Source of the DNA: Myxococcales bacterium
Lineage (GTDB): Bacteria; Myxococcota_A; Polyangia; Polyangiales; Polyangiaceae
Direction: 5' to 3'
Assembly (NCBI GenBank): GCA_016191785.1
Contig: JACPVJ010000184.1
Location: 62,001-126,000, forward strand
DNA length: 64,000 nucleotides
A program made the translations under genes and the position numbers. The notes below the pieces were generated by a model. It was not told where the DNA came from and searched no databases. It worked only from the letters and a program-made list of their open reading frames with translations. Shown piece after piece: positions 21,445-29,954 of the stretch. Every line of letters starts with the position of its first letter. Positions within the stretch are counted from its first letter, which is position 1.

Positions 21445-21470
21445 GGCGGAGAGGGAGGGATTCGAACCCT
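21445..21470. repeat. Left attachment-site repeat (tRNA-Ser 3' fragment)
   Basis: This is an exact copy of 29929-29954: the T-arm and acceptor 3' strand of the tRNA-Ser gene plus two flanking bases. Sequence on either side differs from the right copy, so it is not a second full tRNA gene. It marks the left junction (attL or attR) of the element. Confidence 0.85.
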
Positions 21471-21686
21471 TCGGGCAGCGTTGGCAACATCTTCAAGCGG
21501 CACGCGACCTTGCACACCAACGCCCCGAAATTTCGCTCGAAATGATTCGAGTCGCTCTCTCCGCTGGTCCCCGTGAGTCGACGGGGGTCGAGTGGACTTG
21601 GGCAGGTTTTGGGCAACGGATGGGCGGCGCGCGCCTCGCGGGACGTGCCGCTCGCCATGCCCCGCCCCCACCGGCCGACAGAGCCC

Positions 21687-24107
21687 TCAAGGCGCCGTCG
21701 ACGAGTAGAGCCCTCCACCGTCCACGCAGGCTGCACCGCCTCCGAGGTCGTGCGGCACGCACACCGAGATCTCCCCGTCGCAGAAAGCTCCCGCTGGATC
21801 CGAAGCCCTGAACGCGACGTGGTACACGCGGCCATCGCCTGCGCCGTTGCGCTCTGCGCGCAGGCGTACGGCTGGTGGCGCGCTCGCCTGAATGGCTGCG
21901 TCGGGAAAGAGTGACCCCGACCCAGGTCCCTGTGCAGGTTCATCCTGCCGCACCGATACGACCTCGACCACGACGGGATCTCCGTCCGGATCGGTCACGT
22001 CGACGACGTTCACGTCGACGAATTTCTTGTTCGGAGGCCAGAGCGTGCCCACGTCAGCGTGCGCACTTGAGCACTGCGGTGGGCGGTTCTGGGGAACGGA
22101 CGCGAGCGTCATGTCGTCCAGCTCCATTGGCGAGGCGTCTGCCGGATTCTCGACGAAAAACGCCACCGGATGCCCCTCCACCGGACTCGAAACTTCCCAG
22201 CTCACCTGGTTGTTCACCGGAGTGCACGCGAAGGTGGTCTCGGAGCCGTACTCATCAACGAAGCCACAGGTCAACGGGTGGTCGTCGCCTCGCGCGAGGA
22301 ACTGCCCCCTCCACTGAACACCATTCAGGAGCGCCTGTCGGGTCATCACCATGCGTTCGCCACCGAGCAAGACCGCCGCGTAGCCGCCGAGGCCGTCACC
22401 GGCGAAGCGCATGGGAATAACCTCCGAGCCGCCGCCGATCGGTTCCAGCCCTACTCCTGCGCGCTTGACCATCGTGTCGAAGTCGTTCACCGCGTCCTCG
22501 GCCACCACCACGATCGAGTTCACTCCGAAGTCGCCCAAGAGCGAGACGATTTCCAGTGGGCCGGCGACCTGCGCCGGTGTCGGAGTAAACGAGCCCGACA
22601 CCGTCCCGAAGGAGAAACCGTTTGGCGCGATGAACCGCTGCGCGGCCACTGCCCCGGCGACCGTGATGGCGACGTTGGCCGGAGTGAACGTGGTGATGTT
22701 CGCGGCAATCCGATACCGAGCGGAGGCATCCAGTTGTACGGGCATCGTCAGGTGCTGCGGGTCACCGTACTGGACCGGGAACATCGGCTCGTACCACACG
22801 CGGTACTTCGCGAAGGGCGGGCACGTGATGCACGGCCACGGGATGGGATCGGCGATCACAGGTTTCTGGTAGACCAACTCGAAGAGCTTGAGGTGGCACT
22901 TGAGCCACAGGAGCGGAGAGCTTTCCTTCGATCCCCCGCCGCAGTCATCGGCAGCGTCCTCGGCCAGCTTCGTATAGTTCAACGAAGTGTAAGCCATTTG
23001 TGCCGTGCCCCGAAGCGCGAGCGACTGGGTCTGGCAAAGCCGCGTGGTCAGCGGCTCTTCGCCTCTCGCTACCGGCCCCAGCAAGTCGTGGTGTCCCGTC
23101 GAGTGAACCTGTGTGATGCCGCTGCCAGAAGTGCCGTGGCAACCCATGAGGTCGGTCCACCCGAAATCCGGGTCCGGGCCCCCTGGCACCTTGGCTCGCT
23201 CGAACGTGAAACCTCCAAGCAGCTTCCAAGGGCGAGAACGCAGGGGAAGCGGCTGGTTGTCAGTCCCGAAGAGCGGGTCCGCGAGCGGGCCTCCCTGGCT
23301 GCCCCCGAAGTAATGAAAGTTCTGGTCGTACTGCGAACCGTTTCGCGCGGTGTAGTGCTGGAAGCGATCGTCGGAGGCCACGTTCGGGACGTCGTAGATC
23401 TCATGCTTCCATGGCATGAAGACCTTCAGGCCGGGCACGTCACTATCCGCGACGTTGATCATGCCGTGCTTCTTGCCGGGCTCGCCGTCGCAGCGGAGCA
23501 GGGCCACGTCGGCCGCCAACGCTGCGCTCACTGGCTGATTGCAGCCAATCTGTGGGCCGTAGCCGGACCCGCAGCGCAGGACGACCTCGCAATGGTAGCG
23601 ATCGGTCGCGTAGCCGTCCTGGCTCGACAGGACGACGTGCGTGAAGTCGGGGAACGTCCCGGCCAGGATGGTCGCAGTAGACCAGTTCAGCGTGCTCTTC
23701 GGCACGTAGAATTCGACTCCAACGATGTGCTGTTTCGGATCTTTTACGTCTGGATCCTCCACACAATGAGCGGCGGTGACCGCGTGCTTCGGCGAGATGA
23801 ACGTGACGCCGCAGGTGCCGCGGAGTGGCTTCCCGTTGGAAGCCGTGAGCTGCGCGCCGGATGAGTCTCTGAACGGAACGTGCACGGCAGCGGTCGCGCG
23901 CTCCACGGCGGCCTTGGGCCCTGATGGGGCCAGGCTGACTTCGAAGTAGGTGTTCTCGTGCAAGAGCTCGACCGCTGCCGCACTGGCGGCGACCTGCTCG
24001 GAATGTTCGGCGTCGGACGGCCCGCAGCCAGACGGGCCAAGGGCAACGAGTGCGAGCAGCGCAACCCGCTCAAAGCGGGATGACGGTGAGGAAAGTGAGA
24101 CAGACAT
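21687..24107 (-). CDS. Trypsin-like serine protease lipoprotein with C-terminal beta domains
   Basis: This is an 806-residue protein. The export signal ends near GPSGC. The chymotrypsin-fold protease spans roughly residues 70-340, with catalytic His in TAAHC, Asp in AADVALLRC and Ser in GTSGSG. A long middle region contains strand-rich segments. Near residue 700 there is an LWPPNKKFVDVNV repeat-like module seen in secreted bacterial adhesin/HYR-type proteins, and the tail is Cys/Gly-rich. It is a likely surface or secreted protease. The ATG has GGGGAG 6 bases upstream and overlaps the upstream lipoprotein gene by 38 bases. It is the largest cargo gene of the element; only ~215 bases separate it from the left repeat. 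Confidence 0.8.
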   Translation of the reverse strand: MSVSLSSPSSRFERVALLALVALGPSGCGPSDAEHSEQVAASAAAVELLHENTYFEVSLAPSGPKAAVERATAAVHVPFRDSSGAQLTASNGKPLRGTCGVTFISPKHAVTAAHCVEDPDVKDPKQHIVGVEFYVPKSTLNWSTATILAGTFPDFTHVVLSSQDGYATDRYHCEVVLRCGSGYGPQIGCNQPVSAALAADVALLRCDGEPGKKHGMINVADSDVPGLKVFMPWKHEIYDVPNVASDDRFQHYTARNGSQYDQNFHYFGGSQGGPLADPLFGTDNQPLPLRSRPWKLLGGFTFERAKVPGGPDPDFGWTDLMGCHGTSGSGITQVHSTGHHDLLGPVARGEEPLTTRLCQTQSLALRGTAQMAYTSLNYTKLAEDAADDCGGGSKESSPLLWLKCHLKLFELVYQKPVIADPIPWPCITCPPFAKYRVWYEPMFPVQYGDPQHLTMPVQLDASARYRIAANITTFTPANVAITVAGAVAAQRFIAPNGFSFGTVSGSFTPTPAQVAGPLEIVSLLGDFGVNSIVVVAEDAVNDFDTMVKRAGVGLEPIGGGSEVIPMRFAGDGLGGYAAVLLGGERMVMTRQALLNGVQWRGQFLARGDDHPLTCGFVDEYGSETTFACTPVNNQVSWEVSSPVEGHPVAFFVENPADASPMELDDMTLASVPQNRPPQCSSAHADVGTLWPPNKKFVDVNVVDVTDPDGDPVVVEVVSVRQDEPAQGPGSGSLFPDAAIQASAPPAVRLRAERNGAGDGRVYHVAFRASDPAGAFCDGEISVCVPHDLGGGAACVDGGGLYSSTAP

Positions 24108-28839: not shown

Positions 28840-29902
28840 GATCGACGGAAAATGGTACGCGGATTTTCGATTTCAACATGCGGACGGCACGGCCGAGCGG
28901 GTGCGGAAGCGCTCGCCGGTTCAGTCCAAAGCGGGCGCCGACCAGTTCGAGCACCAGCTTCGGACCGAGCTTCTGGCGCCGGCCCGCACGACACCCAAGG
29001 AGGTGCCGAAGTTCTCGGCGTATGCGACCGAATTCATGGAAACGTACGTGATCGCGAACAACAAACCGTCCGAGCGTTCGATGAAAGCCAGCATCCTGAA
29101 GCATCACCTGCTTCCGGTGTTCGCGGACATGCCCCTCGACGCCATCAAGCTGCATCCGATCGAGGTCTTCAAAGCGAGCTTGCTCGCCAAGGGGCTCAGT
29201 CGGAAGCGGGTGAACAACATCCTCGCTTGCCTCGGAAAGATGCTGCGCTACGCGCACGAAGTCGAGCTGATCGAAGTCGTGCCACGGGTGAAGCTCTTGA
29301 AGATCCCGCCGCAAAAGTTCGACTTTCTCAGCTTCGATGAGCTGTCACGGCTCACCGAAGCGCTGAAAGGCGATCCGGAGCGCTGGGCGCTCGTGCTCTT
29401 GGGCGCAGACGCGGGCCTACGACAGGGCGAGATCATCGCTCTGGAGTGGGGCGACGTGGAATTGGTAGCGGGCGTGCTGACCGTTCGGCGCTCTTCCTGG
29501 AAAGGCCAGGTCGGGACGCCGAAGAGTGGCAGGGAACGCAAGGTTCCACTCACGGCGCGCCTCAAAGCCGCGCTCAAGGCGCATCGGCACCTGAAGTCCG
29601 AGCTGGTGTTCTGCCACTCGGACGGCAAGCCGTTCACGCAGTCTGCAATCGAGGCGGCGCTCCGCTTCGGCTGCAAACGCGCGGGGCTCCGGATCATCGG
29701 CTCGCACGTACTCAGACACACCTTCTGCTCGCACCTCGCCATGCGGGGCGCGGCGCCGAAGGCGATTCAGGAGCTGGTCGGGCACTCGACGCTAAGCATG
29801 ACCCTTCGGTACATGCACCTGGCGCCGAGCGCGTTGCGAGAAGCGATCGGTTTGCTCGACTTTGGGCAGCCGGTGGGCAGTGCCGCGAGCACGGCGGTTT
29901 GA
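28826..29902 (+). CDS. Tyrosine recombinase / integrase
   Basis: This is a 358-residue tyrosine recombinase. An N-terminal arm-binding region and a SAM-like core-binding domain (~60-160) precede the catalytic domain. Catalytic residues are visible: Arg199 (GLRQGE), His294 and Arg297 (HVLRHTF), His320 (VGHST) and Tyr329 (RYMHL). It would catalyse insertion and excision at the 26-bp repeats. The GTG has GGGAGG six bases upstream and overlaps the excisionase-like gene. The stop is 26 bases from the attachment repeat in tRNA-Ser, the usual layout for tRNA-targeting elements. It looks intact. Confidence 0.95.
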   Translation: MAARKIDGKWYADFRFQHADGTAERVRKRSPVQSKAGADQFEHQLRTELLAPARTTPKEVPKFSAYATEFMETYVIANNKPSERSMKASILKHHLLPVFADMPLDAIKLHPIEVFKASLLAKGLSRKRVNNILACLGKMLRYAHEVELIEVVPRVKLLKIPPQKFDFLSFDELSRLTEALKGDPERWALVLLGADAGLRQGEIIALEWGDVELVAGVLTVRRSSWKGQVGTPKSGRERKVPLTARLKAALKAHRHLKSELVFCHSDGKPFTQSAIEAALRFGCKRAGLRIIGSHVLRHTFCSHLAMRGAAPKAIQELVGHSTLSMTLRYMHLAPSALREAIGLLDFGQPVGSAASTAV

Positions 29903-29928
29903 AGTAGCGAGAACGAGTCGGGAAACTC

Positions 29929-29954
29929 GGCGGAGAGGGAGGGATTCGAACCCT
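29929..29954. repeat. Right attachment-site repeat inside tRNA-Ser
   Basis: This is an exact copy of 21445-21470. It covers the T-arm and 3' acceptor strand of the tRNA-Ser gene plus two bases, so insertion rebuilt a complete tRNA on this side. A small 5-bp stem (29914-29918 with 29925-29929) lies just before it. Confidence 0.85.

What the first reader, a model, noticed from the sequence alone, without database searches (positions are those of the whole stretch)
21445..29954. Small integrated element in tRNA-Ser with a protease/lipoprotein cargo
A 26-bp perfect direct repeat brackets 8.5 kb, and the right copy completes a tRNA-Ser(GCT) gene. Integrase and excisionase-like genes sit beside the intact tRNA. 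The cargo includes a trypsin-like lipoprotein, a YihY-type protein and an HTH/zinc-ribbon protein, with no phage or conjugation genes. Seen: the repeats, tRNA and recombinase motifs. Inferred: it is a satellite-type integrative element. Deleting 21445-29928 restores a tRNA gene 16 bases after the 21428 stop.
Basis: partly seen in the sequence, partly recalled or inferred. Interest (0 to 1): 0.72.

Follow-up and report, generated by a model that had tools for sequence, protein, structure and literature searches.

The report
Small mobile island in tRNA-Ser
An 8.5-kilobase block of DNA in what is probably a myxobacterium has inserted itself into the end of a serine tRNA gene, bringing surface-protein genes with it; it is a real genomic island of a known general kind, with no recognised machinery of its own for moving between cells.

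Summary
A perfect 26-bp repeat (21445-21470, 29929-29954; 25 bp in a relative) brackets 8,484 bp, and the right copy is the 3' end of an intact tRNA-Ser(GCT). Beside it lie a tyrosine integrase and an overlapping HTH_17/excisionase-like gene. Same-genus genome G001 has the left gene and the tRNA but no element (contig join inferred). G002 carries a decayed 4,992-bp copy at the same tRNA, lacking the HTH_17 gene, the integrase N-terminus and the middle of the protease. Element genes differ less between the species (dS 0.08-0.43) than two flank genes (0.59, 0.63), which suggests lateral movement. New here: an 11-bp-phased TGGGCA tandem lies just inside both ends and nowhere else in the window, as Int arm sites would; an 11-bp tandem lies at the int 3' end in 26 of 39 relatives. 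Cargo: an XRE regulator, a lipoprotein gene overlapping a trypsin-like protease gene, a Cys-rich lipoprotein and a YihY membrane protein. No replication, packaging or conjugation family was recognised, so 'satellite' is unproven. Verdict: a genuine tRNA-integrated genomic island, a new member of a known kind.

The parts
21445..21470 (+). attL: displaced copy of the tRNA-Ser 3' end (26 bp; 25 bp in G002)
   Evidence: G002 copy
21599..21626 (+). left arm-type tandem: TGGGCA units at 11-bp steps (two exact, third with one mismatch)
   Evidence: kept with T/C variation in G002; function inferred
21687..24107 (-). trypsin-like serine protease, 806 aa, lipoprotein-like leader (by eye)
   Evidence: Pfam Trypsin E=0.0084 under cut-off; triad residues kept in homologues
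24070..24714 (-). lipoprotein, 214 aa, gene overlaps the protease start by 38 nt
   Evidence: homologues in G002 and G025
24828..25109 (-). XRE-family regulator, 93 aa
   Evidence: HTH_31 E=6.3e-13
25172..25915 (+). Cys-rich putative lipoprotein, 247 aa (start codon chosen by eye)
   Evidence: no family hit; homologue in G002 with dN/dS 0.14
25984..26931 (+). YihY/BrkB inner-membrane protein, 315 aa (start chosen by eye)
   Evidence: PF03631 E=1.4e-32
26954..27538 (-). HTH protein with CxxC-rich tail, 194 aa (alternative start at 27592)
   Evidence: weak HTH hits; homologues in 12 of 183 order genomes, own included
27757..28533 (+). 258-aa protein of unknown function
   Evidence: no family; one other genome of 183 in the order
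28564..28839 (+). HTH_17, excisionase/AlpA-like protein, 91 aa
   Evidence: PF12728 E=1.7e-6; role inferred
28826..29902 (+). tyrosine integrase, 358 aa
   Evidence: PF00589 E=1.6e-28; catalytic residues invariant in alignment A1
29863..29879 (+). right arm-type tandem: TGGGCA-N5-TGGGCA inside the int 3' end
   Evidence: exact in G002; function inferred
29929..29954 (+). attR: second repeat copy, part of the intact tRNA gene
29929..30018 (-). tRNA-Ser(GCT), integration target

Best explanation
An 8.5-kb integrative genomic island. Its tyrosine integrase acts at a core formed by the 3' 25 bp of tRNA-Ser(GCT), with flanking arm sites (two 11-bp-phased TGGGCA units on the int side, two or three on the other), and inserts a circular form so that the tRNA is rebuilt; the HTH_17 protein encoded with int is the likely excision factor. 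No means of replicating or leaving the cell was recognised, so transfer is probably passive (transduction, uptake or an unknown helper). The cargo is a small surface-protein set: an XRE regulator, a lipoprotein whose gene overlaps that of a secreted trypsin-like protease, a Cys-rich lipoprotein and a YihY membrane protein, probably for proteolysis at the cell surface. Shown: repeats, tRNA, integrase with catalytic residues, no element in one relative's assembly, decayed copy at the same tRNA in another, lower divergence than two flank genes. Inferred: excision, roles of the tandems and the HTH_17 protein, route of transfer, cargo function (about 0.4 for surface proteolysis).
For: Repeat and tRNA; integrase and HTH_17, catalytic residues invariant in 11 aligned sequences, window included; G002 copy between the same core repeats; G001 without element; dS 0.08-0.43 in six element genes or parts against 0.59 and 0.63 in two flank genes; exact TGGGCA-N5-TGGGCA only at the two ends, 2 found against 0.01 expected; 11-bp tandem at the int 3' end in 26 of 39 relatives, 1.85 expected from random windows, 1 of 38 in mid-int windows; int ends within 100 bp of a tRNA or tmRNA in 10 of 14 and 8 of 20 relatives' loci.
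Against: No excised form or read junction was seen. The G001 empty site rests on joining two contig ends by a 138-nt overlap, and a 124-bp unit stands there. Only two flank genes were measured for dS; YihY (0.43) comes near them. With one mismatch allowed the tandem is less striking (3 found, 0.34 expected, 1 of 100 shuffles reached 3). 13 of 39 int relatives lack the tandem, and some of the 26 look like chance. The HTH_17 match is weak. G+C differs only modestly from the flanks.
Confidence: 0.85

Rival explanations
1. A phage satellite: induced and packaged by a helper phage, with the 258-aa protein or the HTH/CxxC protein as replication or induction factor.
For: Size, int plus an HTH_17 (AlpA-like) gene overlapping it; HTH/CxxC homologues lie near integrases in 6 of 18 loci and, by eye, near phage-like genes in L159 and L165.
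Against: No primase, packaging or capsid family in 9 proteins; no PF03237 terminase in the host assembly; no relative of three element proteins found in viral contigs.
Confidence: 0.2
2. A remnant of a larger prophage or conjugative element that lost its transfer genes and kept int, regulators and cargo.
For: The integrase family also stands in longer loci; in L083 phage-like genes lie near a second integrase beside the same tRNA (by eye). The G002 copy shows that deletion happens in this element.
Against: Two species carry the same small gene set between the same att sites; no stub of structural or transfer genes seen.
Confidence: 0.25
3. No element: a chance duplication of the tRNA tail beside ordinary chromosomal genes.
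For: G001 does carry a tRNA-tail duplication before two tRNA-Ser genes.
Against: Both boundaries recur in G002; tandems at both ends; integrase in the usual place; lower divergence than flanks; no element DNA in G001 beyond tRNA-like and short scattered matches.
Confidence: 0.03

Closest known systems
tDNA genomic islands as defined for Islander (PMC4383910, abstract and outline seen)
   Same: Intact tRNA at one end, displaced tRNA fragment at the other, integrase inside.
   Different: Nothing in the definition; this is a further instance with unusual cargo.
PICMI minimal phage satellites (PMC10803314, passages seen)
   Same: Small, int plus an AlpA-type HTH gene (PF12728 is one of the models used there), a gene overlapping int.
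   Different: PICMI needs a primase gene and sits by fis in Vibrionaceae; no primase found here and the target is tRNA-Ser.
Tycheposons (as described in PMC10872708, passages seen; original paper recalled, not read)
   Same: Cargo element with a tRNA at its border and a tyrosine recombinase.
   Different: Described there as 4-200 kb in aquatic bacteria with metabolic cargo; whether the recombinases share a lineage was not tested.
Genomic islands transduced by a jumbo phage (PMC12595487, listing and start of abstract only)
   Same: Islands that travel in another element's particle.
   Different: No vehicle is known here.

Membership tests
tRNA-integrated genomic island | intact tRNA plus displaced fragment in direct orientation | tested here: met
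tRNA-integrated genomic island | encodes an integrase | tested here: met
tRNA-integrated genomic island | site empty in a relative | tested here: inconclusive
   G001 lacks the element, but its site is split over two contigs with a 138-nt overlap
PICMI | int and alpA | tested here: met
   (PF00589, PF12728); features
PICMI | primase | tested here: not met
   no primase family among 9 proteins
Prophage | structural and packaging genes | tested here: not met
   PHROGs and Pfam, 9 proteins
Integrative conjugative or mobilizable element | relaxase or transfer genes | tested here: not met
   9 proteins; PF02534 absent from the host assembly; oriT not searched
Tycheposon | recombinase of the tycheposon lineage | not tested
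   no reference sequence used

The most novel reading that the evidence does not exclude
A tRNA/tmRNA-hopping integrase family, best represented here in Myxococcota and marked by an 11-bp-phased arm-site tandem written into the last codons of int, builds minimal islands that move surface-protein and protease cargo between soil bacteria with no transfer genes at all, so that an unrecognised common vehicle moves them.
Probability: 0.25. Interest if true: 0.6.

Novelty: new member of a known kind. Interest (0 to 1): 0.38.

Why it matters
It gives a precisely bounded island in a little-studied group, with a relative that lacks it and a decayed copy in another, so acquisition and decay can be read directly. 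The phased tandem at the 3' end of int is a simple sequence mark for this integrase family that could help to place its att sites, and the island is a clean case of the open question of how genomic islands without transfer genes move.

Tried and rejected
AlphaFold2 on the 258-aa protein and on the 214-aa lipoprotein, single sequence: mean pLDDT 39.0 and 41.6, unusable, no fold search made. Looking for the second att copy of 12 Int relatives (14 loci given, with G002's own element and L096): only a 14-nt match in L087, so their sizes are unknown. PADLOC hit only the XRE protein, 12 families, among them the regulator models capH and Control_protein and one REase_II model, so no defence system is claimed. 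The protease call rests on motifs and homologues, as PF00089 is under its cut-off. The G001 124-bp unit was considered as a remnant of this element; apart from the 19-bp tRNA tail it matched neither window nor G002. PDB sequence search: Int matches 14 recombinase and related chains; protease and 258-aa protein nothing below E 0.07.
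Full report
Check of the observation. The 26-bp repeat is exact and lies at the stated places; the right copy is the 3' end of the only tRNA gene found in the window, tRNA-Ser(GCT), 29929-30018, minus strand. The integrase ends 26 bp from the tRNA, convergent with it. Pfam recognises the integrase, an HTH_17 protein just before it, an XRE regulator and a YihY/BrkB protein; the trypsin match is below cut-off. Nine proteins were scanned against Pfam, PHROGs, PADLOC and NCBIfam; none hit a structural, packaging, primase, relaxase or conjugation family. 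G+C is only modestly lower than in most of the flanks; GC3 is 0.74-0.81 in the element genes called against 0.87 and 0.94 in two flank genes.

Who the host is. Among the best named matches of the integrase family are Polyangium fumosum and Myxococcales MAGs, so a myxobacterium is likely; that is inference. The assembly has 8.3 Mb in 216 contigs, 95% complete.

Comparison within the genus. Three genomes of the genus, own included, were searched. In G002 the same element lies between the same 25-bp core repeats at the same tRNA, but is 4,992 bp long: about 1.15 kb (22652-23796, middle of the protease, leaving its two pieces in different frames) and about 2.34 kb (26971-29311: nearly all of the HTH/CxxC gene, the 258-aa and HTH_17 genes and the first 162 codons of int) are missing. 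G002 has no match to the HTH/CxxC or the 258-aa protein. In G001 the left gene and the tRNA lie at the ends of two contigs that share an exact 138-nt overlap; joined, 178 nt separate stop codon and tRNA, with a 124-bp unit between. The same unit stands, contiguous, before a tRNA-Ser(GGA) of G001, which would explain the contig break. In G001 the DNA search finds only the flanks, tRNA-like and short scattered matches, and protein searches find only distant integrases, a 30% YihY relative and the C-terminal domain of the protease.

Divergence. Window against G002: dS 0.08 (protease C-part), 0.12 (lipoprotein), 0.28 (XRE), 0.25 (Cys-rich), 0.43 (YihY), 0.16 (int C-part), against 0.63 and 0.59 for the two flank genes measured; dN/dS 0.06-0.31 in the element. 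The element-free G001 is closer to the window's genome (flanks 86% and 89%) than G002 (flank pieces 75-82%). Lateral acquisition or exchange after the split is the simplest reading; the uneven dS suggests mosaic recombination. Among 183 genomes of the order, matches above 90% to the lipoprotein or the protease occur only in the window's genome and G002.

How it probably integrates. Six residues that I take as the catalytic set of tyrosine recombinases (recalled: R199, K233, H294, R297, H320, Y329) are invariant in 11 aligned sequences, the window's included. TGGGCA-N5-TGGGCA occurs twice in the window, at 21599-21615 and 29863-29879, just inside the two ends; 0.01 is expected. With one mismatch allowed a third unit follows on the left; 3 found, 0.34 expected, 1 of 100 shuffles reached 3. 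G002 keeps the right tandem exactly and the left with T/C variation. To see whether this belongs to the integrase family, the int 3' ends of 39 relatives were examined: 14 places picked from those listed, and 25 of the 79 loci (the first 23 in rank plus L221 and L243, picked by hand). An exact 6-mer repeated at 11 bp is present in 26 of 39, against 0 to 6 of 39 for the spacings 7-10 and 12-15; a 7-mer in 18 of 39 against 0 to 2; 1.85 of 39 are expected from random windows of the same loci (4.3 for spacing 12), and 1 of 38 mid-int windows has one. The units mostly resemble YGGNAN (TGGGCA, ACGGCA, TGGCAC, TGGAGA). Some hits lie elsewhere or look like chance (L086, L087, L088), and 13 of 39 have none. 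A GGCA-N7-GGCA pair stands there in 9 of 25 and, by my reading of the printed windows, in 6 of 14, background 0.011-0.012 per 250 bp. Read with known arm-binding integrases (recalled), these are likely arm sites. Int relatives end within 100 bp of a tmRNA, tRNA-Lys or tRNA-Glu in 10 of 14 loci and of a tmRNA or tRNA-Leu, -Gln, -His, -Asp, -Ser or -Gly in 8 of 20 named loci scanned. In two literature searches (titles and abstract starts of 10 of 54 and 10 of 86 papers seen) I saw no description of this tandem; further searches for islands of myxobacteria (listings only) showed none like this one. That is no proof of absence.

Cargo. The lipoprotein gene overlaps the protease gene by 38 nt. In G025, another genus, a lipoprotein and a protease homologue are neighbours at two loci (L146, L148; in L148 only a part of the protease matches, with one stop read through); a third lipoprotein homologue (L147) overlaps an ORF that did not match the protease. 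An integrase profile finds nothing in the 132 kb of 11 loci with protease or lipoprotein homologues, so the pair also exists as a chromosomal cassette, which this island may have picked up. The residues of the triad, assigned by motif, are kept in homologues. Three of the four cargo products besides XRE have lipoprotein-like leaders (by eye). Surface proteolysis for feeding or competition is my guess at about 0.4.

The HTH/CxxC protein. Homologues occur in 12 of 183 order genomes, own included. Of the 18 other loci, 6 hold an integrase-profile hit and 7 a tRNA; by eye some hold a serine recombinase (L163, L164), phage-like genes (L159, L165) or a primase-like gene (L162). In L159 a 46-bp copy of a tRNA-Arg tail lies 6.9 kb from the tRNA, with the homologue between them. 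It looks like a regulator shared among mobile elements. Many contigs are short.

Transfer. PF03237 and PF02534 are not found in the host assembly, while they rang in 6 and 5 of 14 control genomes. The review PMC11389934 (passages) says that many elements need helpers and that some may use unknown mechanisms; this island may be of that class.

Verdict. Ordinary in kind and well supported in fact: a tRNA-Ser island that has probably moved since the species split, with an arm-site mark that extends to its integrase family. Three points limit the claim: no excision data, an inferred empty site, and no known vehicle.

Noticed in passing
G001: L057 14-183, L058 1-143, L042 150-338: A 124-bp unit made of 19 bp of tRNA-Ser tail, about 58 bp of other sequence and a terminator-like hairpin stands before two different tRNA-Ser genes (GCT and GGA), 98% alike.
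   Followed up: partly
G002: L054 4220-5469 and L056 6510-7749: The gene left of attL (homologue of window 20196-21432) stands about 430 kb away in G002, and a different Gly-rich lipoprotein-like gene stands beside attL there.
   Followed up: no
window 21687-22090, protease residues about 670-806: The C-terminal domain of the protease recurs in many proteins of the order, also without the protease part, with no Pfam match here.
   Followed up: no
L159 8338-8383 and 15270-15347: A 46-bp repeat of a tRNA-Arg tail brackets about 6.9 kb with an HTH/CxxC homologue, next to a phage-like stretch with a tyrosine recombinase.
   Followed up: partly
L083 8115-10460: Two different tyrosine integrases stand on either side of one tRNA-Lys gene, both pointing at it, with phage-like genes further left.
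   Followed up: no
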